Program-made: the position numbers and the translations under genes
Assembly (NCBI RefSeq): GCF_000380185.1
Contig: NZ_KB904768.1
Location: 1-40,259, forward strand
Source: Thiofilum flexile DSM 14609
GTDB taxonomy: Bacteria > Pseudomonadota > Gammaproteobacteria > Thiotrichales > Thiotrichaceae
Reading direction: 5' to 3'
Length of the DNA: 40,259 nucleotides
Notes under the pieces: model-generated
The model's input: only the letters and a program-made list of their open reading frames with translations
Databases searched by the model: none
What the model was told of the DNA's origin: nothing
In this document: positions 1,110 through 36,672 of the stretch, in pieces
How the letters are laid out: every line of letters begins with the position of its first letter
How positions within the stretch are numbered: the stretch's first letter is position 1

Positions 1110-3083
1110 CTAAACAGGTCGTTGCTTAAAAAACTGTATTGGAGCGCTATAGGGTATTTCACTCGGTGGTGATGATTTTAAAATGTGTTTTTTCATCTTA
1201 CCCATGACATGCATTTCACAGGGACGGCATTCAAATTTTAAAGTATAGGTCTCATGACCGGATTTTAATACCATAGGATCAGCGCGTACCTGCCCCATCA
1301 CACCCTGCACCCCTTTCGCTTGCTTGGGGCATAGATTAAACGAGAAGCGTAGGCAGTGTTTGGTGATCATGAGACTCACCTCGCCGGCTTCCTCATGCGC
1401 CTCATACGCAGCCTCAATCACCTCTACCCCATGCTTATGGTAAAACTGCCAAGCTAATGAATTATAGACATTAGCCAGATAGTTTAAGGCTTTATCAGGA
1501 TAAGGGGCGGGAGGCTCAAGCGCTGCCTTTCTAGTCGGGCGTATCCATGCTGCTAGCCGTGCCAGTTCTAATTTCTCTACCGCCTCACGGCGCAAAGCAT
1601 TCAAACTAGAGGCCGCGATAAACCACGCTTGGGATACATCGAGACTAATCTCTTGCGGGGTGAACAGCGTATTACCGAATTTAGCTAACTGCTCGCGTAG
1701 CGCCCCCCACGCTTTATTGGCATCACGAGCTGGCTCTAGGGTTTGCTCTAGGAGAGCCGTTGCACTAATCCCCTCGGCATCCGTAAGGGTCAATGCTAGT
1801 CCGCTGGCAACTTCATGCAATCGCACCCAAATATCGATTTTACGCTCAGCAGAGGGCTTTAATAGTGCGAGTTCCCACGCATGATCGCGATTACGACTCA
1901 CCTCTGTCCCTACTTTTAAGCCCTGTAAAACACTCAGCTCATTCGGCACCACCCGATAAACCGTTGCATCGGCTTGTTGTTTGAGCATCTGTACCGTATT
2001 AGCCTGTAGCCCCACCACTTCACGTTTACGCATAAAATTAAGGCCATCGCCATTGCTCATAGTCTCGGTGGTGGCAATATCTAAACTGTCTTTATTGACC
2101 GCAACTACGACCCCTAACGGTACACCGACAAACTTAGGCGAATCAAAGGCACCAATATCCTCTTGCCGTCCAGTTGCAAAATAATCGGTGCTGCCCCTAT
2201 GAAAGGTCTTATCTGGATTAGGAGTAAAAAAGATCTCGCTTTTGCCTGCACTCGCGGGGGCTAAATCGGAGCGTTTAGCAAAGATTTCATCTAATAATTG
2301 ACGATAATGAGCAGTGATATTTTTGACATAGGAGACTTCTTTATAACGCCCCTCGATCTTTAAGGAGCGCACGCCTGCATCCAACAATGCCGCCAAATTA
2401 GCACTTTGATTATTATCCTTCATGGACAATAAATGCTTTTCAAACGCTACCACCGCTCCGGTTTGATCGGTCAGGGTATAGGGTAAACGACAGGCTTGTG
2501 AACAATCGCCACGATTCGCACTGCGTCCCGTTTCAGCGTGGCTAATATAACATTGCCCCGAAAACGCTACACATAAAGCACCATGAATAAAATACTCAAT
2601 GGTGGCACGATCACCTACTAATTCACTGATCTGCTGTATTTGCGGAATGGTTAATTCCCGTGCCAATACCACTTGAGAAAAACCACTATCCGCCAAAAAA
2701 CGCGCTTTTTCCGGGGTACGAATATCGCACTGCGTCGAGGCATGTAATTCAATGGGGGGCAAATCTAGCTCTAAAATCCCCATATCCTGCACAATCAGCG
2801 CATCCACCCCCGCCTCATAGAGTTCATAGATGAGCTTACGCGCTGGCTCTAACTCGGATTCATGTAAAATGGTATTGAGTGTGGCAAAAATACGCGCATG
2901 GTAACGGTGGGCGAACTGAGTCAGTCCAGCAATATCGGCCACACTATTGCAGGCATTATGCCGCGCCCCAAAGCTAGGCCCACCAATATAGACCGCGTCG
3001 GCTCCATGCAAAATAGCTTCTCGCCCAATAGCAGCCGTTTTAGCAGGGGCTAGGAGTTCAACTTGATGGGGTAATAAGCTCAT
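1110..3083 (-). CDS. rlhA: 23S rRNA C2501 hydroxylase RlhA (U32 peptidase-like family)
   Basis: The 657-residue product matches the long YdcP/RlhA branch of the U32 'peptidase' family. RlhA hydroxylates C2501 of 23S rRNA in the cytoplasm, using prephenate-dependent chemistry and probably an Fe-S cluster. Visible marks are the N-terminal ELLAPAK, GADAVYIGG, IELHASTQ, the HGALCVAFSGQCYISH segment and the cysteine-bearing CSQACRLPY segment, then KSLKIEGRYK. The collagenase-like C-terminal domain ends with C-(x2)-C around residue 630. Length agrees with the E. coli enzyme (about 650 residues). It lies 32 bp downstream of the heptad-repeat gene on the same strand, so they may be cotranscribed, though no functional link is evident. 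No strong Shine-Dalgarno is visible before the ATG. Confidence 0.88.
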   Translation of the reverse strand: MSLLPHQVELLAPAKTAAIGREAILHGADAVYIGGPSFGARHNACNSVADIAGLTQFAHRYHARIFATLNTILHESELEPARKLIYELYEAGVDALIVQDMGILELDLPPIELHASTQCDIRTPEKARFLADSGFSQVVLARELTIPQIQQISELVGDRATIEYFIHGALCVAFSGQCYISHAETGRSANRGDCSQACRLPYTLTDQTGAVVAFEKHLLSMKDNNQSANLAALLDAGVRSLKIEGRYKEVSYVKNITAHYRQLLDEIFAKRSDLAPASAGKSEIFFTPNPDKTFHRGSTDYFATGRQEDIGAFDSPKFVGVPLGVVVAVNKDSLDIATTETMSNGDGLNFMRKREVVGLQANTVQMLKQQADATVYRVVPNELSVLQGLKVGTEVSRNRDHAWELALLKPSAERKIDIWVRLHEVASGLALTLTDAEGISATALLEQTLEPARDANKAWGALREQLAKFGNTLFTPQEISLDVSQAWFIAASSLNALRREAVEKLELARLAAWIRPTRKAALEPPAPYPDKALNYLANVYNSLAWQFYHKHGVEVIEAAYEAHEEAGEVSLMITKHCLRFSFNLCPKQAKGVQGVMGQVRADPMVLKSGHETYTLKFECRPCEMHVMGKMKKHILKSSPPSEIPYSAPIQFFKQRPV

Positions 3084-3115: not shown

Positions 3116-5401
3116 TTAAATAATCTGCATCAGCTTAAGCCCTAAGGTAAAAATCGCTGTGGCAGCGCCTCCGGTAATGAGGCCAATGATTAAGCTATTT
3201 TTTTCACCAGAGGCTTGGCGGGTGGCTATCTTATTGACTTTATCTAATTGCCGATCGCGTTGGGTAATCACTAGATCGCGGGCGCGTAAGTGATCATCGC
3301 GTTGATTGATCTGACTAAAATAGTCCTGCATACGCCCTTCTTGCTGCTGTATCTGCACAGTAAGGCGCTGTATTTCACTATCTAAATGCCTAATATGGGC
3401 TTCTTTGCCCATAATGGTTTCATCGCGCTGCGTCAGCATTTGATCACGGGCTTGTAATTGTAAGGTTTGCTCTTTCAACTTTTGATCGCGCTCATTCAGC
3501 GACTCGTCCCGTTTTTGCAATTGACGCTCACGCTCGGCAACTACTAGATCACGCTCGGCAATGGTTTCCTCACGCCGTGCTAGGGTTTGATCGCGCTCTT
3601 GAATCACGCTGGTTAATTGGGCGATTTGCTGATTTAACGCTTTTACCGTGTTATCCCGCTCCGTGATCTGAACATCACGCGCCTGCAAAGCTATATCACG
3701 CTCTTGCAAGGTTTGCTCACGCTGGCTAAGTGTTGTATCACGCTCGCTTAAGGACTGATCACGTTGCTGGAGTTCAGTTTGTAAACGTTCTAGCTGCCGA
3801 TCACGTTCTTGAATACTATTATCGCGCTCGGTAATACTGGTATCGCGCGTTATTACTTGGGCATTGACTTGTTGAATGGTGTGCTCGCGCTCAGAAAGCG
3901 TGTAGTCACGCATTTGAATGACTTTATCCCGCGCTAGAATATGCCGATCACGCTCGCCTAGTCCCTGCTCTAGACTATGGAGTGCTTGCTCCCGCAGCGT
4001 TAAAACCTGATCACGCTCACTTAAGGTCTGCTCGCGTTGTTGAAGCTGCTGATGGAGCTGCTCAATCTGTACATCACGTAGCTGTAACTGACTATCACGC
4101 TCAGTTAAGGATTGATCACGTTGCTGGAGCTGGTTATCGCGCTGCTGTACTTGGGTATCGCGCTCTGTCAGTTGTAATAGATGAGCACTAATACTTTGAT
4201 CACGCGCTGTTAAAACCTCATCACGTTCCTTAAGCTGCTGATCACGCTCGCTAAGTTGTTGATCGCGCTTAGTCAGGGTTTGATCGCGTAGTTTTAAGAC
4301 CTCATCACGCTCACGCACTTGCTCATCGGCATGCGCTATACGCTGATCACGCCATTGTAAATGCTCATCACGTTCGGAGAGCTGTTTATTACGTACTCCT
4401 AACTGCTCTTCTAAGGCCTTAATCGCTTGTAACTGATTAAAGCTTTGGCTATCGCGCTCGGCAATAGCACGCTCACGCTCGGTGAGGGTTTGATCGCGCT
4501 CTTTTAAGGTCTGATCCCGTTTCGCAATCTGTTGATCACGTTGTCCGACATTATCATCGCGCTCGGCGAGTTGTTTTTGTTGTGCGGAGAGTCTGGCGTC
4601 ACGTTCGTTTAATAATTGTTCTTTGCGGGCGAGTATGTCTTCACGGGCTTGAATCTGCTTATCGCGCTCACTCAGGGTTTGATCCCGCACTTGTACCTGT
4701 GCTTGTGCTTCGGCTAAACGTCGATTGCGCTCGGCTAATTGCTCATCACGCTCAGCCACCGCTTGATCACGGGTAGATAATTGTAAATCACGCTCTTTTA
4801 AGAGCTTTTCTTGCTCTAACGTTTGGCGGGTACGCTCTTGTAGCTGTTGCTCGCGCTCAATGAGTTGCTGGTCTTTTTTCTTGAGTGACTCGTCACGCCC
4901 TTGGGTGATTTTATCTTTACTTTGTAGGGCTTGCTCCGAGCGTAATAGTGAGCGGTCTTTTTCATCTAAGGAGCGATCGCGTTGTTGAATGACTAACTCT
5001 TTTTCTTGTAAGAGCTTTTCAAAGTGCATTAAAGATTTCTCTAGCTCACGCAGGCGTACTTCGCGCTCATTAATAATGGCATCTTTACTCCCCGTATACT
5101 CCTCGCGGCTTTGTAAAGAGGCCAGATATTTATCCATACGAGTAGCAAGCGCTTGGAGGAGTTGCTCCTTCTCTGCTAAGCGCCCGGTGAGTTCTTTTAA
5201 CGCTTGATCACGCTCATCAATGCGTAGATCACGGGTGCGAATATGCCCATCTTTTTCAGACAACATGCCCGATAGGGTTTGTAGACGCTGCTCTAGGGTA
5301 CGTAGATTATCCTTCAGTGCAAGCCTGTCCTGTGCCGTTAAAGAGGTGTTGGAGTCTAATTTCTGAATCAAATCCAAGCCTTGCTCATCCAGCTTCAACA
5401 T
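3116..5401 (-). CDS. RD-heptad coiled-coil protein with C-terminal membrane anchor
   Basis: I do not recognise this as a named family. Of its 761 residues, roughly 50-700 are uninterrupted 7-residue units of the type R-D-x-x-L-x-E (RDQTLSE, RDQQLKE, RDEVLTA and so on), giving one leucine-type core residue per heptad flanked by Arg-Asp and Glu. That predicts a very long charged helix, as a coiled coil or single-alpha-helix rod. A hydrophobic stretch of about 20 residues (around 735-757) near the C-terminus looks like a tail anchor, and no signal peptide is seen. It could be an inner-membrane-attached cytoplasmic rod or spacer. The start has a good AGGACG ribosome site 5-10 nt upstream. The repeat is also visible in DNA as 21-bp periodicity, with the Arg-Asp-Gln codons CGTGATCAA creating many GATC sites. 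Generic 'chromosome segregation ATPase-like' hits would be coiled-coil artefacts, as no ATPase motifs are present. Confidence 0.85.
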   Translation of the reverse strand: MLKLDEQGLDLIQKLDSNTSLTAQDRLALKDNLRTLEQRLQTLSGMLSEKDGHIRTRDLRIDERDQALKELTGRLAEKEQLLQALATRMDKYLASLQSREEYTGSKDAIINEREVRLRELEKSLMHFEKLLQEKELVIQQRDRSLDEKDRSLLRSEQALQSKDKITQGRDESLKKKDQQLIEREQQLQERTRQTLEQEKLLKERDLQLSTRDQAVAERDEQLAERNRRLAEAQAQVQVRDQTLSERDKQIQAREDILARKEQLLNERDARLSAQQKQLAERDDNVGQRDQQIAKRDQTLKERDQTLTERERAIAERDSQSFNQLQAIKALEEQLGVRNKQLSERDEHLQWRDQRIAHADEQVRERDEVLKLRDQTLTKRDQQLSERDQQLKERDEVLTARDQSISAHLLQLTERDTQVQQRDNQLQQRDQSLTERDSQLQLRDVQIEQLHQQLQQREQTLSERDQVLTLREQALHSLEQGLGERDRHILARDKVIQMRDYTLSEREHTIQQVNAQVITRDTSITERDNSIQERDRQLERLQTELQQRDQSLSERDTTLSQREQTLQERDIALQARDVQITERDNTVKALNQQIAQLTSVIQERDQTLARREETIAERDLVVAERERQLQKRDESLNERDQKLKEQTLQLQARDQMLTQRDETIMGKEAHIRHLDSEIQRLTVQIQQQEGRMQDYFSQINQRDDHLRARDLVITQRDRQLDKVNKIATRQASGEKNSLIIGLITGGAATAIFTLGLKLMQII

Positions 5402-5480: not shown

Positions 5481-6026
5481 TCACTCCTCTACCTGCCATA
5501 ATTCGACTCGACTCAAGGCTGCACAACACTGTACTTGCCCTTTAATTGTGCCTAATACATTCGGTTGTAATGCCAGCACCTGCCAAGCCTCCGCATAAGG
5601 CGCGGGAATGGGATAAGGCGCAGTTAATTCCCAACGCGGTGCGGCTTGAAACCCAAAACGCTGATAATAAGCAGGATCACCAAACACAAACACTAAAGCC
5701 ACCCCTTGCGCGGTTAATTGCTCCAAACCTGCCTTGATTAATTGGCTGCCAACCCCTTGCTTTTGATAACGTGGTAATACTCCTAAAGGCGCTAATGTCA
5801 TGGCGGTCACGGCTTCATGCCCCGTCATTCTAGCCCTAGAAAAGACCACATTCCCCACCACTTGATTACCCTCTAGTGCGACTAAACTCATTAAGGGCTG
5901 AGCACTATTATCTTGTTGAAAATCAGCTAATAATTGCTGGATTGTTGCCGCCTCACTATTAAAGGCTTGCTGATGTAACAAGGTAATATCCGGCTGATGC
6001 TGGGCTAATGCGCTGGTAATTAACAT
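5481..6026 (-). CDS. GNAT N-acetyltransferase, YhbS-like
   Basis: A single GNAT domain of about 181 residues. The acetyl-CoA-binding signature is visible as L-G-V-L-P-R-Y-Q-K-Q-G-V-G-S-Q-L, followed by a V-F-V-F-G-D-P-A-Y-Y-Q-R-F-G-F strand typical of YhbS-type enzymes. Substrate unknown; the family acetylates small molecules or protein N-termini in the cytoplasm. An in-frame ATG lies 7 codons upstream at 6047, but the ATG at 6026 has a GAGGA motif 8 nt before it and gives the usual family N-terminus (MLI...), so I chose it. It is divergent from the GntR-type regulator at 6135, leaving about 108 bp between them for both promoters. Confidence 0.85.
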   Translation of the reverse strand: MLITSALAQHQPDITLLHQQAFNSEAATIQQLLADFQQDNSAQPLMSLVALEGNQVVGNVVFSRARMTGHEAVTAMTLAPLGVLPRYQKQGVGSQLIKAGLEQLTAQGVALVFVFGDPAYYQRFGFQAAPRWELTAPYPIPAPYAEAWQVLALQPNVLGTIKGQVQCCAALSRVELWQVEE

Positions 6027-6134
6027 AGGTTTATCCTCACTAGTCATTAGGTCAATACCTCAATTCCTATTATACTAACACCCTTTTTGACTATACTTGC
6101 GAGCACTCATGGCATTCGTACTAAAAGGGTATTC

Positions 6135-19489: not shown

Positions 19490-20200
19490 ATGCAATTAGA
19501 TACTTTATACACGGTGCATACCCCTGAAGGTATTGCCCTAACACTCACCCCCGCAGGGTTTGTACCACGCTTTATGGCTTGGTTGATTGATTTACTGATC
19601 CGGTTTGGCGTGGGTATTACGCTGATCAGCATCTTAGGGCTACTAGGCTATCTCGGTGGGGGCTTAACCTTGATTTTGATCTTCCTATTAGAATGGTGGT
19701 ATCCAGTGTGGTTTGAATGGCGTCATCAAGGCCAAACCCCCGGCAAGCGCTTATTTGAGCTTTATACCGTACAACGCGATGGGAGTCCGGTTACCTTTTC
19801 AGCCTCACTATTGCGTAACTTGATTCGCTTTGTTGATTTTATGCCATTTTTTTATGGTTTTGGGGTGATCAGCTTACTTTTCACACGGCATTTCCAACGC
19901 TTAGGCGATTTAGCCGCCGATACATTAGTAGTATATAAGCCACATCTTCATGCTCATCGCGCCCTACCCGCCGTGGAGCCTTTGCCACTGCCCCAACCCT
20001 TACTGATTCAAGAGCAACAAACGTTACTACAATTTGCCGAACGTTACCGTACTCTCACCACCGCACGGGCGGATGAACTTGCTCAAATTACCGCAAGCAC
20101 ACTCACTCAAGGACAACCCCCTAGTCTGACCTTACAACGCTATGCCGTATGGATTGCGGGGCAACATACCCTGACGCCTAAACAGGTAGCCAACTCATGA
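19490..20200 (+). CDS. RDD-family membrane protein
   Basis: The 236-residue product has an RDD domain (about 20-150): A-W-L-I-D-L-L-I-R with Arg/Asp positions in TM1, T-P-G-K-R-L-F between TM2 and TM3 and R-L-G-D-L-A-A-D-T-L-V at the end. A cytoplasmic C-terminal tail of about 80 residues follows. Function of RDD proteins is mostly unknown; some are linked to ion transport. It is the first gene of the MoxR/DUF58 operon and its stop overlaps the next start by 4 bp. No clear ribosome site is present before the ATG. Confidence 0.85.
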   Translation: MQLDTLYTVHTPEGIALTLTPAGFVPRFMAWLIDLLIRFGVGITLISILGLLGYLGGGLTLILIFLLEWWYPVWFEWRHQGQTPGKRLFELYTVQRDGSPVTFSASLLRNLIRFVDFMPFFYGFGVISLLFTRHFQRLGDLAADTLVVYKPHLHAHRALPAVEPLPLPQPLLIQEQQTLLQFAERYRTLTTARADELAQITASTLTQGQPPSLTLQRYAVWIAGQHTLTPKQVANS

Positions 20201-21195
20201 AGCAATTACAATTTATTGAGCATTACCAAACGGTCTGGACTCAATTACAAGCTTGGCTCGATTATTTAGCTTTATCTAAACATAAGCAGCAAGCACAGAG
20301 CGCACCTAGTGGGCAATTTGCCGAACTCTATCGTCAAACCTGCCATCATTTAGCCCTAGCACAAGCCCGCCATTATAGTCCGCAGTTATTAGAACGGTTA
20401 AATCATTTAGTCGTCGCAGGGCATCAGCAATTCTACCGTGAGCGTGAGCCTATTTGGACTCAGGCTTGGAATTTTTTAGCGCTACAATTTCCCGCTCAAG
20501 TGCGTGCGCAATGGCGTGTAGTCGCACTATCGGTAGCCATCTTTTATGGCAGTATGCTGCTCTTTATTTTCCTGACGCAATGGCAACCGGATTTAGTGTA
20601 TTCCGTGCTGGATCCTATGCAGGTAGCGCAAATGGAGTCCATGTATGATCCCAAATTACATGACCGCTTAGGGCGTGAGCGGGAGGCGGATAGCGATGTG
20701 TATATGTTCGGGCACTATATTCGCAATAATACCAGCATTGGGTTTCAGGCTTTTACCAGTGGCTTACTCTTGGGTGTTGGTACACTATTTATCTTGTTAT
20801 TCAATGGCATAGTTTTAGGCGCAGTCGCCGGGCATCTGACTTATCTGGGTTATAATGATACCTTTTGGGGCTTTGTGGTCGGGCATAGTGCCTTTGAGTT
20901 AACCGCTATAGCCCTATCCGGTGCGGCAGGTTTTAAGCTCACTCAGGCGCTACTATTCCCCGGACGTCAAACTAGGCTCTATGCGCTACGTACTAATGGG
21001 CGGATTGCGATCCAATTGATGTACGGTGCTGCTTTGTTATTTTTAATGGCGGCCTTTGTGGAAGCCTTTTGGTCTTCTCAAGCACAAACACCACTCAGCA
21101 TTAAATATACGGTAGGAGCTGTGCTTTGGGTGCTCACTCTTGCTTGGTTAGGCTGGGGGGGACGTAAACATAGTGTGCAGCAGGTGAATCTATGA
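20197..21195 (+). CDS. SpoIIM-like membrane protein (DUF95 family)
   Basis: The 332-residue product has a soluble N-terminal third and about five transmembrane helices from residue 110 onward, with G-H-Y-I-R-N-N-T-S-I-G-F, F-N-G-I-V-L-G and G-H-S-A-F-E-L-T-A-I, which are SpoIIM hallmarks. In sporulating bacteria SpoIIM is part of the engulfment complex; in Proteobacteria it sits with RDD, MoxR and DUF58 genes and has no known role. Overlaps both neighbours by 4 bp. Confidence 0.85.
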   Translation: MKQLQFIEHYQTVWTQLQAWLDYLALSKHKQQAQSAPSGQFAELYRQTCHHLALAQARHYSPQLLERLNHLVVAGHQQFYREREPIWTQAWNFLALQFPAQVRAQWRVVALSVAIFYGSMLLFIFLTQWQPDLVYSVLDPMQVAQMESMYDPKLHDRLGREREADSDVYMFGHYIRNNTSIGFQAFTSGLLLGVGTLFILLFNGIVLGAVAGHLTYLGYNDTFWGFVVGHSAFELTAIALSGAAGFKLTQALLFPGRQTRLYALRTNGRIAIQLMYGAALLFLMAAFVEAFWSSQAQTPLSIKYTVGAVLWVLTLAWLGWGGRKHSVQQVNL

Positions 21196-22688
21196 CACCT
21201 AAACTCACCATTACCCTACGCGAACGCCTACCTTTTGAGGCGCTTGACTTAGGTTTACGCTTAACGCAGTCATCCCCTCTGATCTGGCAAGGATGGATTT
21301 TATTCATACTCTTGGTGGGACTATTTTTTTGGGCGGTATTACCTTCAGAAAAACTCTGGATTGGTTTAATTGTCATCTGGTGGTTTAAGCCCTTATATGA
21401 CCGTTTTTTATTATACGGTTTGAGTCGAGTGGTGACCGGGCAGCCCCTCACCCTAATACAGTGGTTTAATGCGATACCCTCCCTACTACGTCAGAGCGAT
21501 TTAAGCGCCGCACTCACATGGAAACGCTTTTCCTTAGTACGCTCTTATGTACAACCTGTGTGGCAATTAGAGGGTCTAAAAGGCTCAGCCGCACGTAAAC
21601 GCCGCACCCTGTTAGTGAGTCAATTTAATCGTCATGCGGCTCTCTTAACGATTAGTCTCTTCCTAGCTCAACTGTCCATTTTTCTATCTTGTTATGGTTT
21701 ATTATTGGTATTTGACCCTAGTGATGCGACCTATGAACATATTCGCAATATTTTCACGGGCTATATCGATCGTAAAGAAGAGTATTGGCATCACTTGCTT
21801 GATTATGGCTTTTGGCTACTGGGCATTATAGTCATAGAACCTTTTTATGTGGCGGCAGGCTTAACGCTCTATTTGAATCGCCGCATACAACTAGAAGCTT
21901 GGGATATTGAACAATCATTACGCACACTAGCACAGCGATTAAGTCAAAAAGCTAACACCTTAACAGTAAGCCTAGGGGTAATTATTATTTTGCTCCTTGG
22001 TCATGTACCTACCCCCAACTACGCCGCTGAATCAACCGCAACAGAGCCTATCGCTCAAGAGCGTTTAGCCCCTAGTCAAGCTAAACAGCAAATCGAAGCT
22101 ATTTTAGATGAGAATGAAGTGCAAAAACGCACTGTGCACCGTTGGGTTGCGAAAAAGCAAGAGAAGGACGAAACGGCTAAGAAAGCATCCGTTTCAGATC
22201 AGATGATTACCAGCTTGGCTCAGGTATTTGAAGGCAGTTTATGGGTGTTTATGGTGATTGGTTTAATTCTGGCATTTATTTATCGCGCCACGCTGCTTAA
22301 GCTATTAAGACCTTATCAACACAAAGCACCCGCTTTTTCCCCACCAAAGACTTTATTTGGTTTAGCCGTCAGTGCGGAGAGTTTACCTAGTGATATTCCC
22401 GCCGCCGCTCAACAGGCTTGGCAACAAGGCCACTATCGTGAAGCATTAAGTTTGCTCTATCGCAGCGCTTTGTATCAGCTGACCCATCAGCAACAAGTAC
22501 AGATTCAAGCTCATCATACCGAGGGCGATGTATTAGTTCTAGCCCAACCTAAAAGCTCGGATCCGCAACTCGCTTACCTCACGCTATTGACCCATTATTG
22601 GCAACAAACCGCCTATGGTCATATCCCTCCTGCCAATGAGGTACTGAATCAATTACTCCATGCACGACAACAAGCCGAGGCCGTATGA
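21192..22688 (+). CDS. Membrane protein of the MoxR operon (DUF4129-like C-terminus)
   Basis: The 498-residue product has predicted helices at about 30-60, 155-180, 205-230, 260-285 and 345-365, a charged segment (about 290-340) rich in Gln, Glu and Lys, and a cytoplasmic C-terminal domain (about 400-498) with A-W-Q-Q-G-H-Y-R-E-A-L-S-L-L-Y-R-S-A-L. That helix pair is what DUF4129-type proteins of MoxR/DUF58 loci carry. Probably part of a membrane complex with the neighbouring proteins. Function unknown. Confidence 0.78.
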   Translation: MTPKLTITLRERLPFEALDLGLRLTQSSPLIWQGWILFILLVGLFFWAVLPSEKLWIGLIVIWWFKPLYDRFLLYGLSRVVTGQPLTLIQWFNAIPSLLRQSDLSAALTWKRFSLVRSYVQPVWQLEGLKGSAARKRRTLLVSQFNRHAALLTISLFLAQLSIFLSCYGLLLVFDPSDATYEHIRNIFTGYIDRKEEYWHHLLDYGFWLLGIIVIEPFYVAAGLTLYLNRRIQLEAWDIEQSLRTLAQRLSQKANTLTVSLGVIIILLLGHVPTPNYAAESTATEPIAQERLAPSQAKQQIEAILDENEVQKRTVHRWVAKKQEKDETAKKASVSDQMITSLAQVFEGSLWVFMVIGLILAFIYRATLLKLLRPYQHKAPAFSPPKTLFGLAVSAESLPSDIPAAAQQAWQQGHYREALSLLYRSALYQLTHQQQVQIQAHHTEGDVLVLAQPKSSDPQLAYLTLLTHYWQQTAYGHIPPANEVLNQLLHARQQAEAV

Positions 22689-23923
22689 AAGATCACCTTC
22701 ATACCTTATTAATTAGCCTATTAGTAGCTGCGGTCATAGCAGGGGCGGGTTATTGGTTTTTTACTCATTACGAACTCAAGGGCTATGAGGAGCAAATCGG
22801 GGCGCAAGGCGAGGCTGCTCACAATAACCTTTACTATTCACGGCTATTTTTAAAGCGCATGGGGATTGCCACTGAGTCTAAAACGCAGTTTACTTTGCCC
22901 GATACGCAAACGGTATTAGTGCTAGACAGCGAGCGTTATGTGCTTAGCCAAGATAAAATCCAAGAGCTATGGGCTTGGGTAGAACAAGGGGGACATTTAG
23001 TCACCCGCCTACGTAATCGTAATACCTCAAAAGATAAAGAAGAATTTGAAGAAAACACTGAAAAAGATACTGAGGACAGCACCAATAACTCTCAGGATAA
23101 ACCAGCACCTACTGATAAAAAAAGCAGTCAAAGCCATGACCTATTGCAAGAGCGACTCCAGATTCAAGGCGGACGCTATCAATCAATGAGCACGGATGAT
23201 CTACCCCTCAAAGCCCAGCTACCCTCCTCTAAACAGGAGTTGGTGGTCGATTTTGATTTATTTCGTGCCATTAAAAGCACTGAGCACGAGTGGGCGCTCA
23301 AAAGTCCTAAAGGTGATTATTGGCTAGTGCATAAACGACAGGGTAAGGGCGCAGTAACCGTAGTCAGTGAATTTGATTTTGCTGATAACACTAGCTTAGG
23401 TGATGAGGATAATGCGGAGTTTTTTTGGTCGCTGCTGCACCTCCAGCATACTCCTACACAGGTGTGGATTATCCGCGATCAAGATTTCCCTTCGCTTCTC
23501 ACCTTACTCTGGAATTATGGCACCTTAGTGCTATTTAGTTTCGGTGCTTTATTAGTATTAAGTGCTTGGGCGTGGATGCCGCGTTGGGGAGCACTCATTC
23601 CACTACCGCCCCCTACACGCCGCCGTATTATTGAACATCTAAAAGCTAGCAGTCGTTTTCAATGGTTTCAGCAACCACAAGGACGCAGCACGATGATTGA
23701 AAGCTTACGCCGCGATACCTTGCAAGTAGCCCAAAAACAACTCCACTCTTGGTTTAATTGGGGAGAGGCAGAACGCTGGCAAGCACTCGGTCATCCCTTA
23801 CAGCTAGATCTCACTACTATCCAAACCTTATTCCAAGCACCCGAATTAAAAGAGGCTGAGTTAATACAGCTCGCACAGCTCAATCAATATTGGAGACACG
23901 CGCAACATGCAAGATCAAATTAA
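22685..23923 (+). CDS. DUF4350-like membrane protein of the MoxR operon
   Basis: The 412-residue product has an N-terminal helix (about 8-28), an extracytoplasmic domain (about 30-275) and a second helix (about 280-300), then a cytoplasmic tail. The segment L-F-L-K-R-M-G-I and W-V-E-Q-G-G-H-L-V fits DUF4350, a glutamine-amidotransferase-like fold without obvious catalytic residues. An acidic, Lys/Ser/Thr-rich insert (about 116-155) interrupts the domain. It overlaps the MoxR gene by 17 bp. Confidence 0.78.
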   Translation: MKDHLHTLLISLLVAAVIAGAGYWFFTHYELKGYEEQIGAQGEAAHNNLYYSRLFLKRMGIATESKTQFTLPDTQTVLVLDSERYVLSQDKIQELWAWVEQGGHLVTRLRNRNTSKDKEEFEENTEKDTEDSTNNSQDKPAPTDKKSSQSHDLLQERLQIQGGRYQSMSTDDLPLKAQLPSSKQELVVDFDLFRAIKSTEHEWALKSPKGDYWLVHKRQGKGAVTVVSEFDFADNTSLGDEDNAEFFWSLLHLQHTPTQVWIIRDQDFPSLLTLLWNYGTLVLFSFGALLVLSAWAWMPRWGALIPLPPPTRRRIIEHLKASSRFQWFQQPQGRSTMIESLRRDTLQVAQKQLHSWFNWGEAERWQALGHPLQLDLTTIQTLFQAPELKEAELIQLAQLNQYWRHAQHARSN

Positions 23924-24872
23924 TACCGCCAGCCAAGTACTACAACAGATTCGCACACAAATTCAAACCGCCTTAATCGGTCAAGAAACGGTAGTACATG
24001 AAACACTATTGGCACTGTTAGCCGGTGGGCATGTATTGATTGAGGGGGTGCCGGGCTTGGGTAAAACCTTATTGGTGCGAGCGTTAGCCCAAACCATTAG
24101 CGGGCAGTTTGGGCGCATTCAATTCACCCCAGACCTCATGCCCGCCGATATTACTGGGCATACCCTATTTGATCGGGAAACCCAGCAATTCCAAGTCCGC
24201 AAAGGGCCTATTTTTACTAATCTATTATTAGCTGATGAAATCAATCGTGCTCCGGCTAAAACCCAATCTGCCCTATTAGAAGTTATGCAGGAGCAACAGG
24301 TTACCCTTGATGGAAAATCCTACCCTGTGCCACTCCCCTTTATGACCTTGGCGACTCAAAATCCACTGGAACAAGAAGGCACCTATCCATTACCTGAGGC
24401 ACAGCTTGATCGTTTTTTATTAAAAATTCGTATGAGCTACCCCACCTTAGAGGAAGAAAAGGCTCTCACCGCGCTAGTCACCCAAGCCCACTCCAACTCT
24501 GGCTTTAATTTGGACTCGGTACAAGCCGTGGTCACTCCGCAGCAGATCATTGAATTGCAGCAAATATGTACTCAGATTGCGGTCGATGAGGCGGTATTAG
24601 ACTATGCGGTACGCCTTGTACAAGCAACCCGTCAACATGCCGGTATCCGTGTTGGTGCAGGCCCGCGTGGTAGTATTGCCCTAATCCGTGCAGCGCGAAC
24701 TGAAGCCTTACTACAGGGTCAAGCCTTTGTCACACCGGATCATATTAAAGCCATTACGCTGCCGGTATTACGCCATCGGATTGCCTTACATGCTGAGCTA
24801 GAATTGGATGGGGTCAGTAATGATCAAGTACTTACCACCCTACTTGAACAAACCGCAGCACCACGGCAATGA
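23907..24872 (+). CDS. MoxR-family AAA+ ATPase
   Basis: The 321-residue product has Walker A G-V-P-G-L-G-K-T (about residue 48), Walker B L-L-A-D-E-I-N-R-A-P-A-K-T-Q and the sensor region T-Q-N-P-L-E-Q-E-G-T-Y-P-L-P-E-A-Q-L-D-R-F, ending in the helical lid with G-A-G-P-R-G-S. MoxR ATPases act as chaperones for partner complexes, often through von Willebrand A-like proteins. The DUF58 product encoded directly downstream is the expected partner. ATGA-type overlap couples the two genes. Confidence 0.92.
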   Translation: MQDQINTASQVLQQIRTQIQTALIGQETVVHETLLALLAGGHVLIEGVPGLGKTLLVRALAQTISGQFGRIQFTPDLMPADITGHTLFDRETQQFQVRKGPIFTNLLLADEINRAPAKTQSALLEVMQEQQVTLDGKSYPVPLPFMTLATQNPLEQEGTYPLPEAQLDRFLLKIRMSYPTLEEEKALTALVTQAHSNSGFNLDSVQAVVTPQQIIELQQICTQIAVDEAVLDYAVRLVQATRQHAGIRVGAGPRGSIALIRAARTEALLQGQAFVTPDHIKAITLPVLRHRIALHAELELDGVSNDQVLTTLLEQTAAPRQ

Positions 24873-26185
24873 TTATTCCTAGTAAACGTCTGCTCTGGCT
24901 TAGTGTCGCTTTAGTAGCTCTAGCACTAGCGTTTAGTATTGCCCAAGCAGGCAACACCCTCTTTTTAATCTTAGCTAGCCTAGTTGCGGGTATAGTACTC
25001 TTAGATGCGCTCTGGTGTTGGATTAGACCTCATTCTATCCATTTTAAACGGATTCTGCCCCAGACCTTAGTGGTCGGTATGCCACAAGTGGTGCATATTC
25101 AGGTGGAGGGTAGTCAGCGCACGGAAACCTTACAACTCTACGATCACGTACCCGCCGACTTTCAAGTGACCGCGCAACACTTACCACTGCAGTTACTATT
25201 ACCCGCACAACAAAACGCTGAAGTTGGCTATGAAATGACGCCTGTTAAGCGGGGCTTAGCACACTTTACTACTTTACAAGTGCGCACCTTATCGCGCTTA
25301 GGCTTATGGTGGCGAGATAGGAAAATAGCCTTAGCGCAAGAGGTCAAGGTTTATCCTAATTACACCGCTTTTGCGCGTTATACTCTGCTCGCTGCCGAAC
25401 AACAACTCAATCAAATGGGCATTAATCGTCGCCCAAGGCGGGGTGAAGGGCAGGACTTTCATCAATTACGCGACTATCGAGAAGGCGATAGCATTCGCCA
25501 AATTGACTGGAAAGCCAGCGCCCGCATTCAAGCCTTAGTCACGCGCGAATACCAAGAAGCCCGCGACCAAGAAGTATTAATCATGGTCGATTGCGGGCAT
25601 AGGATGACCGCTCATGATCAAACCATTGCACATTTTGATTATGTCTTAAATGCCGTATTGCTCTTAGCACATGTCGCCCTCAAACAAGGCGATGCGGTGG
25701 GTCTCGGAACCTTTGGTACTGCCGAACCCCGTTGGATATTACCCAAAAAAGGGCAATATGGTTTACAGCAATTATTAACTCAAACCTATGACTTGCAACC
25801 GAGTGAACAAGCCCCTGATTATTATCAAGCCGCTTTAAGCGTGGTAGCACGGCAAAAACGCCGCGCCTTAGTGCTGTGGATTACTAATTTACGTGATGAA
25901 GATCAAGGCGATTTATTACCGGCTTTGCAATTAGTGCGTAAGCGCCATCCGGTCGTCATCGCGAGTTTACATGAAACCGCCATTGATGTTCTGCTAGAAC
26001 AAACTATACACTCACTGCCAGAGGCATTAGACTACGCAGCTGCTGTGCAACATTTACAAACTCGTGCAACACTCATGAAGACGCTGCAAGCCAGTGGTAT
26101 TGCGGCGTTAGATGTTATGCCCACCGAGTTAGCTGCAAAGCTAGTGAATCACTATTTAGATATTAAACGTAATCAACTTTTTTGA
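24869..26185 (+). CDS. DUF58-family protein (vWA-like)
   Basis: The 438-residue product has two membrane helices at about 8-45, then a beta-rich segment, then the DUF58 signature R-R-P-R-R-G-E-G-Q-D-F-H-Q-L-R-D-Y-R-E-G-D and I-D-W-K-A-S-A-R (about 190-215). A vWA-like domain follows (V-D-C-G-H-R-M at about 246; the usual D-x-S-x-S MIDAS is altered to D-C-G-H-R). It probably presents a cytoplasmic vWA domain to the MoxR ATPase. Its stop codon abuts the right end of the TnpB element, so the insertion lies exactly at the end of this operon and may have replaced a natural 3' end. Confidence 0.88.
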   Translation: MIIPSKRLLWLSVALVALALAFSIAQAGNTLFLILASLVAGIVLLDALWCWIRPHSIHFKRILPQTLVVGMPQVVHIQVEGSQRTETLQLYDHVPADFQVTAQHLPLQLLLPAQQNAEVGYEMTPVKRGLAHFTTLQVRTLSRLGLWWRDRKIALAQEVKVYPNYTAFARYTLLAAEQQLNQMGINRRPRRGEGQDFHQLRDYREGDSIRQIDWKASARIQALVTREYQEARDQEVLIMVDCGHRMTAHDQTIAHFDYVLNAVLLLAHVALKQGDAVGLGTFGTAEPRWILPKKGQYGLQQLLTQTYDLQPSEQAPDYYQAALSVVARQKRRALVLWITNLRDEDQGDLLPALQLVRKRHPVVIASLHETAIDVLLEQTIHSLPEALDYAAAVQHLQTRATLMKTLQASGIAALDVMPTELAAKLVNHYLDIKRNQLF

Positions 26186-26320
26186 CATCCTCCCCGACCT
26201 AAAGGACGGGGATTCCTGCTGCCAGACGCTCATGTCCGAGCGCGAGAATGTTCTTAGCTGCATTGACATCTCTATCATGCATTGCTCCACACTCAGGGCA
26301 AGACCATTCTCTTATTCGCA
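26184..26320 (-). ncRNA. Putative omega-RNA overlapping the tnpB 3' end
   Basis: In TnpB systems the guide RNA scaffold is made from the 3' end of tnpB through the right end, and the guide is the flanking host sequence. Here the tnpB stop lies inside the right-end hairpin, whose stem CCCCG/CGGGG with CC-TAAA-GG apex is the typical right-end form. The 5' limit is a guess. The predicted guide would read from about 26185 downwards, i.e. antisense to the end of the DUF58 gene. Confidence 0.45.
26192..26211 (-). repeat. Right-end hairpin of the TnpB element
   Basis: CCCCG-A-CC-TAAA-GG-A-CGGGG: two stacked stems with an A/A mismatch, containing the tnpB stop codon (26199-26201). Confidence 0.75.
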
Positions 26321-27302
26321 AACCTGTCCTACCTTTCGGACTATTGGAGCCTATGCAGCCACAACACGAACAAGCTTGGGTGGTGTACGATTCATTGACT
26401 TCTAGATACACACCTGACCGCGCACTCGCTTTGTATTTCAGTTGTGTTTTGAGCATAAACCAGCCTGCATCTAATACGGATTTAGCCATCTTGGTTTTGG
26501 CTAGGGCTGAACTACTGACATTGCCAATGATGATTAAGCCGTTGTTTTTAACGACTTGGGTTGTGAATTGGTGAATGGAGTTTAGGCGGCGATTCTTGAT
26601 TTTAGCATGAATCGCTTTCACCCGTTTTTTCTGTTTAGCCCTTTGAGCTATACCCAGTTTAGATTCCAGCTCTCGATAGAATTGTTTGGACTCTAGCTTT
26701 AAGCCATTGCTACAGGTAGCCGTGTCTTTGAGTCCTAGATCAATGCCTACTTGTCCTTGTGCTATCGACTCTGTAACAGGGACTGCTACGACCACATTGA
26801 AGTACCAGCGACCTCTAGCATCCTGAGAGAATGAGCCTGAGCGGAACTCGTATTGAGAGAGTCCATAGCTATCCCATACCTTAAAGTAGTGACCCGCATA
26901 GCGAACTTGCCCATTCTTCCATACGGCTGCGCCTTTTTTAAAGGGTATCCATCCTAAAGAACGCTTAGAACCACTAGAAATACGCCAGCGCAATTCACTT
27001 TTCTTGAATTGCTTGCGGGCTTTCTCGTGGGCTTCCGTCACTTCTTGAACTGTTTGAGAGTGAATGAGAAACCCACGTTCTTTACGCAAAGTGGCTTGAG
27101 ATTTAGCAAGATCATAGGCGCTCAGGTATACATGAAGCCAACCAACCTCAGGAATCGGTAAATGTGCATAATAGGCCGCTTCTTCATTGGCCGCATTCCA
27201 CACCTGATTCACCTCAAAGGCCATACGCTCCAGAATAGGCGTGTGCTTATCCTTGACTCGTACTTTTAGCGTTTTGAGAACTGTCACTAGGGGGGATGTC
27301 AT
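26199..27302 (-). CDS. tnpB: RNA-guided endonuclease TnpB (RuvC-II glutamate displaced)
   Basis: The 367-residue product has an N-terminal helical/wedge region with W-N-A-A-N-E-E-A, then RuvC-I G-I-D-L-G-L-K-D (Asp188), a bridge-helix segment, and the C-terminal zinc ribbon C-S-C-C-G ... C-P-E-C-G (311-338), followed by RuvC-III H-D-R-D-V-N-A-A-K-N-I-L (Asp343/345). Where most TnpBs have the RuvC-II glutamate, this one reads I-I-I-G-N-V-S-S-S with Gly260. A glutamate is present instead before the zinc ribbon, at V-N-E-S-Y-T-T-Q (Glu304; Glu301 nearby), the position usually held by Asp-Pro. This matches the GNVSS/GDVSS subgroup, for which a relocated catalytic Glu has been proposed. The frame is intact, so it may be active. 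Confidence 0.93.
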   Translation of the reverse strand: MTSPLVTVLKTLKVRVKDKHTPILERMAFEVNQVWNAANEEAAYYAHLPIPEVGWLHVYLSAYDLAKSQATLRKERGFLIHSQTVQEVTEAHEKARKQFKKSELRWRISSGSKRSLGWIPFKKGAAVWKNGQVRYAGHYFKVWDSYGLSQYEFRSGSFSQDARGRWYFNVVVAVPVTESIAQGQVGIDLGLKDTATCSNGLKLESKQFYRELESKLGIAQRAKQKKRVKAIHAKIKNRRLNSIHQFTTQVVKNNGLIIIGNVSSSALAKTKMAKSVLDAGWFMLKTQLKYKASARSGVYLEVNESYTTQACSCCGCIGSNSPKGRTGLRIREWSCPECGAMHDRDVNAAKNILALGHERLAAGIPVL

Positions 27303-27335
27303 GTTACTATTCTAACTCAAGTGAACGACCGAATC

Positions 27336-27352
27336 ATCGGTTTGTAACCGAT
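27336..27352. repeat. Hairpin between tnpB start and left end
   Basis: ATCGGTT-TGT-AACCGAT, a perfect 7-bp stem with a 3-nt loop, in the leader of tnpB. It may be a second subterminal structure or a translation control; I cannot tell which. Confidence 0.5.
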
Positions 27353-27363
27353 TCGCCTTATAT

Positions 27364-27384
27364 CCCCGCCGTGAACGGACGGGG
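27364..27384 (-). repeat. Left-end hairpin of the TnpB element
   Basis: CCCCG-CCG-TGAA-CGG-A-CGGGG, an 8-bp stem with one bulged A. Its outer CCCCG/CGGGG stem equals that of the right-end hairpin, as expected of the two ends recognised by one TnpA. Confidence 0.75.
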
Positions 27385-27424
27385 TTTTACGGCGAAATTG
27401 ATAATATTGAACAGGAGGCTCAAC

Positions 27425-27643
27425 ATGGCAGAATGGCGTACTATTGCAAAAGCAGCGGTATTAGGGGATGGACACATTAGTCAAAAAGAAGTGCAATTAT
27501 TGCGTGACCTAGTCTTAAAAGATGGTCGTGTGTCTAAAAGCGAATTAGCGTTCCTCAAAGAAATCAAAGCCGAAGCTAAAACAGCGGTAAAAATGCTGGA
27601 CGAGCTGATTGCTGACTGCGAAAAAGTAGCTACAGGCGACTAA
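27425..27643 (+). CDS. Small acidic two-repeat protein, TerB-like appearance
   Basis: A 72-residue protein that I cannot name. An AGGAGG site 7 nt before the ATG at 27425 fixes the start; the longer frame from 27296 runs through the TnpB element and is not used. Two adjacent units align: L-G-D-G-H-I-S-Q-K-E-V-Q-L-L-R and L-K-D-G-R-V-S-K-S-E-L-A-F-L-K, each an Asp-Gly turn followed by a helix. This resembles the helical Asp-Gly repeats of TerB-like proteins and superficially EF-hands, but the full calcium-loop residues are absent. The left end of the TnpB element lies only about 25-60 bp upstream, so its original promoter may have been displaced. Confidence 0.75.
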   Translation: MAEWRTIAKAAVLGDGHISQKEVQLLRDLVLKDGRVSKSELAFLKEIKAEAKTAVKMLDELIADCEKVATGD

Positions 27644-32786: not shown

Positions 32787-32817
32787 GACAGTTTGCTTAA
32801 GACATAATGTCGCATAT

Positions 32818-32846
32818 TTGAGAGAAATAACTCTAAATACTAGACT
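32818..32846 (+). promoter_or_regulatory. Candidate sigma-70 promoter for the TorD-like and fdh structural genes
   Basis: TTGAGA, 17-bp spacer, TAGACT. Position (78 bp before the chaperone ATG) suits an internal promoter that would allow separate expression of the enzyme subunits. The -10 matches 4 of 6 consensus bases. Confidence 0.4.
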
Positions 32847-32850
32847 GATT

Positions 32851-32886
32851 ACCGTTATTAGGCAGTATTTTCCCCCTAATAATGGT
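32851..32886 (+). promoter_or_regulatory. Leader hairpin before the TorD-like gene
   Basis: ACCGTTATTAGG (32851-32862) pairs over all 12 positions, with one G-T wobble, with CCTAATAATGGT (32875-32886); loop 12 nt. It lies 38 bp before the ATG and lacks a T-tract. It could be an mRNA processing or stability element dividing the operon. Confidence 0.5.
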
Positions 32887-32923
32887 ACAGGAATTGCTAG
32901 TAACCCTGAACGAAGGAGAGGGA

Positions 32924-33523
32924 ATGCAACTAGAAGAACACACAGCCATCGCCCCAGAGCAGCAATACCGCGCTAGTGTTTATCGTTTATTAGCGGCGTT
33001 ATTGCGTGATATTCCCAGCGAGGCGGTGCTGACCTATGCGCGACAACTAGCAGACCTCAGCGAGGGAGGTGATGCCTTGGCAACCGCATTGGTGGGATTA
33101 GGCTTAGCGGCTCGTCATACCGATCCATTGGCCATTGATGATGAGTTTCACGCCTTATTTATTGGTATGGGTCGCGGTGAAATCGTTCCCTATGGCTCCT
33201 GGTATTTAACCGGCTTTCTGATGGAAAAGCCTTTGAGCTTATTACGTCAGGAACTCTTTGCACTGGGGTTTGAACGCGATCCAAGCGTCAAAGAACCCGA
33301 AGATCATGTCGCCGCCCTGTGCGAGGTCATGGCTATACTTATTGAAACCGACGCAGAATTTGCCCAACAACAGCACTTTTTTAGTCGACATATAGCCGAT
33401 TGGCAACAACGCTTCTATCAAGACCTAGAACAAGCACCTTCGGCCGCTTTTTATCAGGCTGTTGCCCAACTTGGCAGCGCTTTTATTCAGTTTGAGCAAC
33501 AGTATTTCAGTATTCAACAGTGA
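32924..33523 (+). CDS. TorD/DmsD-family molybdoenzyme chaperone
   Basis: A roughly 199-residue all-helical protein: Y-R-L-L-A-A-L-L near the start, then D-E-F-H-A-L-F-I-G and P-Y-G-S-W-Y-L-T-G-F, the conserved core of TorD-like chaperones, and E-P-E-D-H-V. Such proteins bind the twin-arginine signal of the catalytic subunit until cofactor is inserted. The ATG at 32924 has GAAGGAG 8-9 nt upstream; an upstream ATG at 32882 has none. It directly precedes the TAT-signal proteins it probably serves. Confidence 0.86.
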   Translation: MQLEEHTAIAPEQQYRASVYRLLAALLRDIPSEAVLTYARQLADLSEGGDALATALVGLGLAARHTDPLAIDDEFHALFIGMGRGEIVPYGSWYLTGFLMEKPLSLLRQELFALGFERDPSVKEPEDHVAALCEVMAILIETDAEFAQQQHFFSRHIADWQQRFYQDLEQAPSAAFYQAVAQLGSAFIQFEQQYFSIQQ

Positions 33524-33533
33524 GAGACAGAGC

Positions 33534-33749: not shown

Positions 33750-33761
33750 CAGGAGCCTGCG

Positions 33762-36662: not shown

Positions 36663-36672
36663 GGAATCTATC

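What the first reader, a model, noticed from the sequence alone, without database searches (positions are those of the whole stretch)
3116..5401. 761-residue protein built of Arg-Asp heptads with tail anchor
About 90 consecutive units of R-D-x-x-L-x-E predict a rod of some 100 nm with unusually few hydrophobic core positions, ending in a membrane helix. I know of no named bacterial family with this exact layout. It could be a membrane-tethered spacer, scaffold or polarity factor.
Basis: partly seen in the sequence, partly recalled or inferred. Interest (0 to 1): 0.6.

Follow-up and report, generated by a model that had tools for sequence, protein, structure and literature searches.

The report
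Fixed-length membrane-tethered arginine-aspartate coiled-coil rod
A bacterial gene encodes a helical rod about 100 nanometres long, probably tied to the membrane by its tail, whose length has stayed nearly constant in most related bacteria while a soluble sister protein changed length freely, which suggests that the cell uses it as a spacer or tether of set length.

Summary
The 761-residue protein is real and lies on the minus strand (3116-5401). Residues 57-721 are 95 in-register heptads; all 49 RD dipeptides share one phase. Only 19 heptads match RD-x-x-[LIVM]-x-E, so 'about 90 units' overstates the motif, not the register. In 22 orthologues core position a is hydrophobic (97%), d is Arg (73%) and e is Asp (71%). 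A single charged helix is rejected. The C-terminus is a predicted transmembrane anchor with GxxxG in 22 of 22.

The conserved tail occurs in 24 of 63 genomes of the host family (4 of 8 genera); 398 genomes sampled from the phylum gave only this genome and one weak match. A soluble paralogue beside rpoH has RD heptads and no anchor; 18 of its 25 carriers keep the same N-terminal cap, but not this genome. After about residue 102 the rod shows no insertion or deletion in 22 of 22 intact copies. In 13 shared genomes it measures 766-775 residues, the paralogue 373-681.

Best reading: a parallel dimeric, inner-membrane-tethered cytoplasmic spacer or tether presenting its N-terminus about 100 nm from the membrane. 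A membrane-bound filament is the main rival. Partner, localisation and function are untested.

The parts
3116..5401 (-). CDS of the 761-aa coiled-coil protein with predicted tail anchor (family A)
   Evidence: ORF and translation; seven orthologues at 44-48% identity over the full length; dN/dS of the rod 0.006-0.044 in the 6 of 7 orthologue pairs where dS could be estimated
5234..5401 (-). N-terminal cap, residues 1-56, with the motif K-L-D-x-N-x-x-L-T-x-x-D (window: KLDSNTSLTAQD), shared with many copies of soluble paralogue B
   Evidence: Alignment A1 of 20 N-termini (11 A, 9 B): K14, N18, L21 invariant; T22, D25, L29 nearly so. B copies of the own genome, G017 and G027, which lack the cap in the frame read, were left out of it
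3239..5233 (-). Rod: 95 in-register heptads, residues 57-721; a = L/I/V, d = mostly R, e = mostly D
   Evidence: no gap after alignment column 117 (about window residue 102) in 22 of 22 intact copies
4814..4834 (-). Heptad 20 (RTRQTLE, residues 190-196): core position a is not L/I/V/M in any of 22 orthologues; mean column identity 0.95
4436..4456 (-). Heptad 38 (RDSQSFN, residues 316-322): core position a is not L/I/V/M in any of 22 orthologues; candidate hinge; near a low-confidence dip (320-323) and helix break (328-331) of the AlphaFold2 model
3137..3193 (-). Predicted C-terminal transmembrane anchor, residues 737-755
   Evidence: Kyte-Doolittle 19-mer mean 1.98; 1.65-2.66 in 22 of 22 orthologues; the single-sequence AlphaFold2 model does not resolve this region
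3170..3184 (-). GxxxG (residues 740-744) in the anchor
   Evidence: GxxxG in 22 of 22 tails; G740 and G744 invariant in the 8 aligned sequences
5481..6047 (-). Upstream neighbour: GNAT acetyltransferase (79 bases apart, same strand)
   Evidence: no relative found in the other 11 A regions compared, two of them cut short by contig ends
1110..3083 (-). Downstream neighbour: U32-family peptidase (32 bases apart, same strand)
   Evidence: no relative found in the other 11 A regions compared, two of them cut short by contig ends

Best explanation
The protein is a tail-anchored, parallel coiled-coil dimer. The C-terminal helix sits in the inner membrane (no signal sequence; GxxxG packing in the dimer). 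The 95-heptad rod stands in the cytoplasm. The conserved N-terminal cap is held at a set distance of about 100 nm from the membrane, where it binds a partner. The soluble paralogue B, which has RD heptads, no anchor and in 18 of 25 carriers the same cap, is the first candidate partner or competitor. In the rod, Leu/Ile/Val at a forms the seam; Arg at d faces Asp at e' of the other chain, a ladder of inter-chain salt bridges that fixes register and parallel orientation. Shown from sequence: layout, length constancy, purifying selection, positional identity of heptads, shared cap, distribution. Predicted: helix and membrane anchor. Inferred: parallel dimer, cytoplasmic side, Arg-Asp pairing, tether or spacer role, partner.
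For: Register: 49 of 49 RD in one phase. Over window residues 120-721 in 22 orthologues, position a is L/I/V/M/F in 97% of cells, d is R 73%, K 8%, L/I/V/M/F 11%, e is D 71%, E 15%. In 12 of 95 heptads at least half of the orthologues have a hydrophobic residue or Ala at position 1, while position 2 is L/I/V/M/F in 2% of cells, which makes position 1 the second core position, d. Single alpha-helix rejected: opposite-charge i+3/i+4 pairs 36 and 33 against 50.8 (sd 5.9) and 50.4 (sd 5.8) in shuffles; hydropathy peaks at periods 7 and 3.5. Length: no gap after column 117 in 22 of 22 intact copies. In the same 13 genomes A is 766-775 aa with 0.17 gap openings per 100 substitutions, B 373-681 aa with 1.83. 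Heptads keep their order: in-register identity 0.45-0.55 in five pairs, 0.24-0.31 at shifts of 1 to 6 heptads. Purifying selection: rod dN/dS 0.006-0.044 in 6 of 7 pairs, the seventh not estimable; dN lower than B in 10 of 10 pairs and than ComEC in 10 of 10, higher than RpoH in 10 of 10 and dxs in 6 of 6. GxxxG and a hydrophobic tail in 22 of 22. Review PMC5082667 (passages read): coiled coils conserved in length and divergent in sequence act as molecular spacers.
Against: Coiled coils in general vary little in length (same review), so part of the constancy may be generic; B is the internal control but evolves faster overall, and three of its 13 copies share one large deletion. One relative (G018, another genus) is longer: 927 aa before its contig ends, about 1,017 if a piece on another contig that shares 41 residues is its other half; G070 lacks 57 alignment columns near the N-terminus. 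The rod is also conserved in sequence (identity 0.55-0.95 within genus g2), more than a pure spacer would need. No gene neighbour is shared across the A regions of different genera. B lacks the cap in 7 of 25 carriers, the own genome among them. The AlphaFold2 model is low-confidence (one sequence, mean pLDDT 67, pTM 0.22) and leaves the tail unstructured. My Crick-geometry tests of the Arg(d)-Asp(e') contact fitted badly and are not used; that contact rests on textbook knobs-into-holes packing (recalled). Oligomeric state was not tested.
Confidence: 0.45

Rival explanations
1. Membrane-bound filament former. The rods assemble side by side, alone or with soluble paralogue B, into a cortical skeleton under the inner membrane, like bacterial intermediate-filament-like proteins; fixed length and ordered heptads reflect a fixed stagger.
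For: Sequence, not only length, is conserved along the whole rod. The rod is far above 80 residues, the rod criterion of PMC2680258 (passages read). A soluble paralogue with RD heptads exists.
Against: No axial charge or hydropathy periodicity beyond the heptad: strongest periods not significant by permutation, p 0.70 and 0.74. B varies from 373 to 681 aa in one genus, awkward for a fixed co-assembly. Transmembrane segments were an exclusion criterion for candidates in PMC2680258.
Confidence: 0.25
2. Generic coiled coil with no specific length-dependent role; its evenness is a by-product of slow evolution of a useful helix.
For: Coiled coils generally have low length variation. One longer (G018) and one shorter (G070) relative exist.
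Against: About eleven-fold fewer gap openings per substitution than the paralogue in the same 13 genomes, and each heptad keeps its identity and place.
Confidence: 0.13
3. [quoted passage not shown] coli ElaB, YqjD and YgaM.
For: Same predicted topology class: C-terminal transmembrane segment, no signal sequence; description of the class from PMC6389858 (passages read).
Against: No Pfam or NCBIfam match to such a family. The rod's net charge is -18 over 665 residues, not what an RNA binder would be expected to have. The 95-heptad rod has no counterpart there (recalled).
Confidence: 0.1
4. Collar or envelope protein of sulfur inclusions, on the cytoplasmic face of the membrane that surrounds periplasmic sulfur globules.
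For: The host family probably contains Thiothrix-like sulfur bacteria (weak inference from L035). A globule protein suggested to be coiled-coil, SgpD, is known in Allochromatium (abstract and passages).
Against: SgpD has a Sec signal peptide and is periplasmic; this protein has no hydrophobic N-terminal segment. The tail was not found in 34 of 34 genomes, some incomplete, of four other genera of the family; which of those store sulfur was not tested.
Confidence: 0.07

Closest known systems
Golgins with a C-terminal transmembrane anchor such as giantin (PMC5082667 passages) and plant PICC/PICL (PMC3581476, search listing only)
   Same: Long coiled coil ending in a C-terminal transmembrane segment, N-terminus as the reaching end, length kept while sequence diverges (giantin)
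   Different: Eukaryotic; no sequence comparison with them was made beyond Pfam and PDB searches; vesicle and small-GTPase binding cannot apply as such; Arg at one core position in most heptads here
Bacterial intermediate-filament-like rod proteins, crescentin and FilP (PMC2680258 passages)
   Same: Rod of more than 80 coiled-coil residues with no enzyme domain
   Different: This rod has a predicted membrane anchor, which that survey excluded; its heptad register is unbroken while the IF-like rods are segmented; no family match
E. [quoted passage not shown]
   Same: C-terminal transmembrane segment without signal sequence in a gammaproteobacterium
   Different: Those are about 100 residues long (recalled); no family match
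Omp-alpha of Thermotoga maritima (PMC5082667 passages)
   Same: Bacterial membrane-attached coiled-coil rod proposed as a spacer of set length (50 nm)
   Different: Spans the periplasm; this protein has no signal sequence, so its rod should stay in the cytoplasm

Membership tests
Ribonuclease Y (Pfam RNase_Y_N PF12072 scores 81.6 bits, above its cut-off of 32) | RNase Y full-length profile score, with KH and HD domains after the N-terminal coil (domain layout recalled) | tested here: not met
   NCBIfam RNase_Y 41.4 bits against a cut-off of 454; no KH or HD family matched; the best Pfam stretch covers 73 residues of repetitive coil
Ribonuclease Y | N-terminal transmembrane helix (recalled) | tested here: not met
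   The only strongly hydrophobic 19-mer is at the C-terminus
GAGA-binding protein family (Pfam PF06217, 62.7 bits, above its cut-off of 26.6) | At least one stretch that passes on its own | tested here: not met
   0 stretches pass individually; taken as a composition match
FlbB periplasmic flagellar collar protein | Equivalog cut-off 110 bits | tested here: not met
   47.3 bits
Single alpha-helix (charged SAH) domain | Excess of i+3/i+4 opposite-charge pairs and no hydrophobic seam (recalled) | tested here: not met
   Pairs below shuffles; strong 7- and 3.5-residue hydropathy periods
Canonical coiled coil with two hydrophobic core positions | Hydrophobic residues at both a and d | tested here: not met
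   a 97%, d 11% L/I/V/M/F over 22 orthologues
Bacterial IF-like rod protein (survey criteria of PMC2680258) | More than 80 residues of coiled coil | tested here: met
   665 residues of in-register heptads; no formal coiled-coil predictor was run
Bacterial IF-like rod protein (survey criteria of PMC2680258) | No transmembrane segment | tested here: not met
   Predicted C-terminal transmembrane segment in 22 of 22
Bacterial IF-like rod protein | Forms filaments in vitro | not testable with these tools
   needs purified protein
[quoted passage not shown]
   By hydropathy only; the AlphaFold2 model neither supports nor excludes it
Golgin-like tether (works like, not a member) | Long rod, C-terminal anchor, length conserved with diverging sequence | tested here: met
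   with the exceptions G018 and G070; sequence diverges less than in a pure spacer
Golgin-like tether (works like, not a member) | Binds a membrane or particle at the far end | not testable with these tools
   needs a binding assay
Sulfur globule protein of the SgpD kind | Sec signal peptide, periplasmic | tested here: not met
   no N-terminal hydrophobic segment; SgpD features from PMC10386293

The most novel reading that the evidence does not exclude
An undescribed two-protein cytoskeletal or tethering system confined to four genera of one bacterial family. Its rods use a charged core code (Arg at d paired with Asp at e' in most heptads) in place of two hydrophobic core positions. One member is anchored by its tail and measures a nearly fixed distance of about 95 heptads, or 100 nm, from the membrane. 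The other is soluble and free in length, and in 18 of 25 carriers has the same N-terminal cap. It would be a bacterial analogue of golgins or spindle-pole spacers with its own coiled-coil chemistry.
Probability: 0.25. Interest if true: 0.65.

Novelty: new variant of a known kind. Interest (0 to 1): 0.42.

Why it matters
I know of few bacterial proteins that set a distance of 100 nm from a membrane. If the length is functional, this gives a natural ruler whose heptads can be added or removed one by one. The Arg(d)/Asp(e) pattern, repeated over most of 95 heptads, would also be a natural test of how far charge alone can set register and orientation in a coiled coil. The paralogue pair (anchored and length-fixed, soluble and length-free) makes the length question testable inside one genome.

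Tried and rejected
Single alpha-helix: rejected by charge-pair and periodicity statistics. RNase Y, GAGA_bind and FlbB matches: composition or coil-only matches. Operon-based function: relatives of the window's GNAT and U32 neighbours were found in none of the 11 other A regions compared, two of them cut short by contig ends; 5 of 6 regions of genus g2 have ComEC just upstream, and g5 regions have EamA or NlpC/P60 genes (only one representative of each cluster was searched in Pfam). Paralogue B sits beside rpoH in 9 of 9 B regions, which looks like inherited gene order, not a pathway. Axial periodicity for staggered assembly: none significant. Crick-geometry models of the Arg(d)-Asp(e') distance: the first gave an unrealistic a-a' spacing, the second needed an unphysical radius and missed its target distances, so neither is used. 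Relatives elsewhere: the N-cap profile gave 22 weak matches (best 1.7e-4) outside the family in 369 class genomes, mostly to the coil part of the profile. The tail profile gave, in 398 phylum genomes, the own genome and one 40-position match at 4.2e-4 in a frame with stops. The whole-protein profile gave 9 of 369 class genomes outside the family at E <= 1e-10, covering 106-307 of 774 positions, with in-phase RD runs of at most 98 residues against 658 here; by eye these are other proteins (a MotB-like one, glycosyltransferase-like ones), not searched further. PDB by sequence and by profile: no match. 16S for naming the host: none found in this assembly. Literature: in the rows listed by searches I saw no paper describing this protein; searches listed only part of their hits, and subscription journals are mostly not held. 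Fold search was not run, because a low-confidence long helix matches anything. The second structure job was not used.

Full report
Observation. The window encodes on its minus strand an ATG-started protein of 761 residues (3116-5401). Residues 57-721 form 95 heptads. All 49 RD dipeptides, at residues 57 to 715, are spaced by multiples of seven, and self-identity at lags 7, 14, 21 and 28 is 25-28% against about 5-8% at the other lags up to 29. The motif is looser than the finding says: R at position 1 in 63 of 95 heptads, D at position 2 in 55, both in 49, L/I/V/M at position 5 in 91, and RDxx[LIVM]xE in 19. Tandem repeats at the DNA level have nearly vanished, so the periodicity is kept at the protein level.

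What kind of helix. Over window residues 120-721 in 22 orthologues, position 5 is L/I/V/M/F in 97% of cells, position 1 is R in 73% and K in 8%, and position 2 is D in 71% and E in 15%. In 12 of 95 heptads at least half of the orthologues have a hydrophobic residue or Ala at position 1, whereas position 2 is L/I/V/M/F in 2% of cells. So position 5 is core position a and position 1 is core position d, three residues after a. The coil therefore has mostly Arg at d and Asp at e. Opposite-charge i+3/i+4 pairs are fewer than in shuffles (36 and 33 against 50.8 and 50.4), and hydropathy peaks at periods 7 and 3.5, which rejects a single alpha-helix. In parallel dimers the d side chain packs against a', d' and e' of the other chain (textbook, recalled), so an inter-chain Arg-Asp ladder is plausible; my own geometric tests were poor and are not used. 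Oligomeric state was not tested. AlphaFold2 on the single sequence gives helices 23-161, 173-327 and 332-726, with mean pLDDT 67 and pTM 0.22. The dip at 320-323 and the break at 328-331 lie at or just after heptad 38 (316-322), whose a position is L/I/V/M in 0 of 22 orthologues. Other dips (97-106, 160-172, 496-498) have no such conserved counterpart. Heptad 20, whose a position is also never L/I/V/M, shows no dip.

Membrane anchor. Residues 737-755 are the only strongly hydrophobic 19-mer. In 22 orthologues the best tail 19-mer scores 1.65-2.66, GxxxG is present in 22 of 22, and the 20 residues before it have a net positive charge in 22 of 22. With no signal sequence this suggests an inner-membrane tail anchor with the rod in the cytoplasm (inference). 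The AlphaFold2 model does not resolve the tail.

Family and distribution. The 80-residue tail profile matches at E <= 1e-19 in 24 of 63 genomes of the host's family: 16 of 16 in genus g2, 6 of 9 in g5, 1 of 3 in g6 and the own genome (g1); 0 of 34 in g3, g4, g7 and g8, some of which are incomplete assemblies. Four more genomes have only weak partial matches (4e-4 to 0.007). The N-terminal cap profile, which finds A and B alike, matches at E <= 1e-6 in 27 of 63 genomes, 4 of 8 genera. Outside the family it gave 22 weak matches in 369 class genomes (best 1.7e-4, mostly on the coil part). The tail gave one weak match besides the own genome in 398 phylum genomes. The whole-protein profile meets partial coil matches in 9 other class genomes at E <= 1e-10, with in-phase RD runs of at most 98 residues against 658 here. 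There is no PDB match by sequence or profile, no PHROGs match and no supported Pfam or NCBIfam membership. Two Pfam scores do exceed their cut-offs (RNase_Y_N, GAGA_bind), but they are coil or composition matches: the RNase Y equivalog scores 41 of the 454 bits needed, and no KH or HD domain was found.

Soluble paralogue. Twenty-five of 63 genomes carry a second protein, B, recognised at E <= 1e-6 by its own C-terminal tail. It has RD heptads and no hydrophobic tail, and lies beside rpoH in 9 of 9 regions examined. The cap was aligned in 11 A and 9 B sequences (K14, N18, L21 invariant). Counting the whole family, 18 of the 25 B carriers show the cap on B; the own genome (B of 507 aa), G017, G027, G070, G080, G081 and G082 do not. 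In G027 the frame lacks its start, in G070 the contig ends, and in G080-G082 a deletion removed most of the cap. G072 has A but no B at that threshold. G018 shows B by its N-terminus only, on a short contig. G069, G071 and G073, all under 82% complete, show B without the A tail.

Length constancy. Twenty-two intact A genes were compared: 15 of g2, 6 of g5, 1 of g1. Dropped were G077 (broken frames), G018 (split over contigs) and G071 (run of N). Lengths are 761-776 in 21 of 22; G070 is 717, lacking 57 columns near the N-terminus. No gap occurs after alignment column 117 (about window residue 102) in 22 of 22, while identity of seven orthologues to the window protein is 44-48%. In 13 genomes of g2 with both genes intact, A is 766-775 residues (CV 0.003; 0.17 gap openings per 100 substitutions) and B 373-681 (CV 0.198; 1.83 per 100); three B copies share one large deletion, and pairs of genomes are not independent. 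The order of heptads is kept: in-register identity 0.45-0.55 in five pairs, 0.24-0.31 when slid by 1-6 heptads. Against the ruler idea, G018 of genus g6 is longer: 927 residues before the contig ends, and about 1,017 if a 131-residue tail piece on another contig, which shares 41 residues, is its other half.

Selection. In 6 of 7 A pairs the rod's dN/dS is 0.006-0.044; in the seventh dS was saturated. Across 15 pairs of six g2 genomes, dN of A is below that of B in 10 of 10 pairs that had both and below ComEC in 10 of 10, and above RpoH in 10 of 10 and dxs in 6 of 6. Most synonymous distances are near saturation, so only dN is compared. The rod is therefore conserved in sequence as well as length. 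By the scheme of the review PMC5082667 (passages read) this lies between a pure spacer and a rod with interactions all along it.

Function. No neighbour is shared across the A regions of different genera (12 regions with the window). The best reading is an inner-membrane-anchored spacer or tether of nearly fixed length that presents its N-terminal cap about 100 nm away; a membrane-bound filament is the main rival. The lack of a significant axial charge or hydropathy period (permutation p 0.70 and 0.74) and the length freedom of B speak against regular staggered co-assembly, but only weakly. The host's name is unknown; a Thiothrix-like member of the Thiotrichaceae is a guess from one named MAG (L035), which shares the U32 protein at 75% and three other proteins at 71-81% with these genomes.

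Verdict. It is a new variant of a known kind (long membrane-tethered coiled coil), unusual for a charged residue at one core position over most of 95 heptads and for its length constancy. Function remains untested.

Noticed in passing
window 1110-3083: The U32-family peptidase is 75-79% identical to Neisseriales/Chromobacteriaceae proteins (best 79%, Chromobacterium haemolyticum, L104) and 75% to one uncultured Thiothrix MAG (L035); no relative lies in the 11 other A regions compared. Possible horizontal transfer.
   Followed up: partly
window 26199-27302 (-), with 27296-27643 (+): OrfB/TnpB-like protein with a Cas12f1-like TNB domain, divergent from an unidentified 115-aa ORF: an IS200/IS605-type element candidate.
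   Followed up: no
window 19490-26185: Gene run RDD, SpoIIM, DUF4129 (just below its cut-off), DUF4350, MoxR-type AAA ATPase, DUF58: a MoxR-DUF58 membrane-associated cluster (cluster type recalled).
   Followed up: no
window 30783-37389: DUF3306/4Fe-4S protein, molybdopterin oxidoreductase and a 4Fe-4S subunit, perhaps a formate-dehydrogenase-like operon (the enzyme name is a guess).
   Followed up: no
L029 (G030), and open frames of 399-492 aa in ten other family genomes listed but not read: L029 looks by eye like a glycosyltransferase that carries short ERD heptads before its C-terminus; the others may be the same family.
   Followed up: no
L209, L210: Proteins that look MotB-like by eye, with an N-terminal membrane segment and long mixed E-R-D heptads, in another gammaproteobacterial family; the best-scoring look-alikes outside the host family.
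   Followed up: partly
L193, L195, L196 (paralogue B in G082, G080, G081): B is 373 aa: the start MNREEQTLI runs almost straight into the rod, apparently by a large internal deletion that removed most of the conserved cap motif.
   Followed up: no
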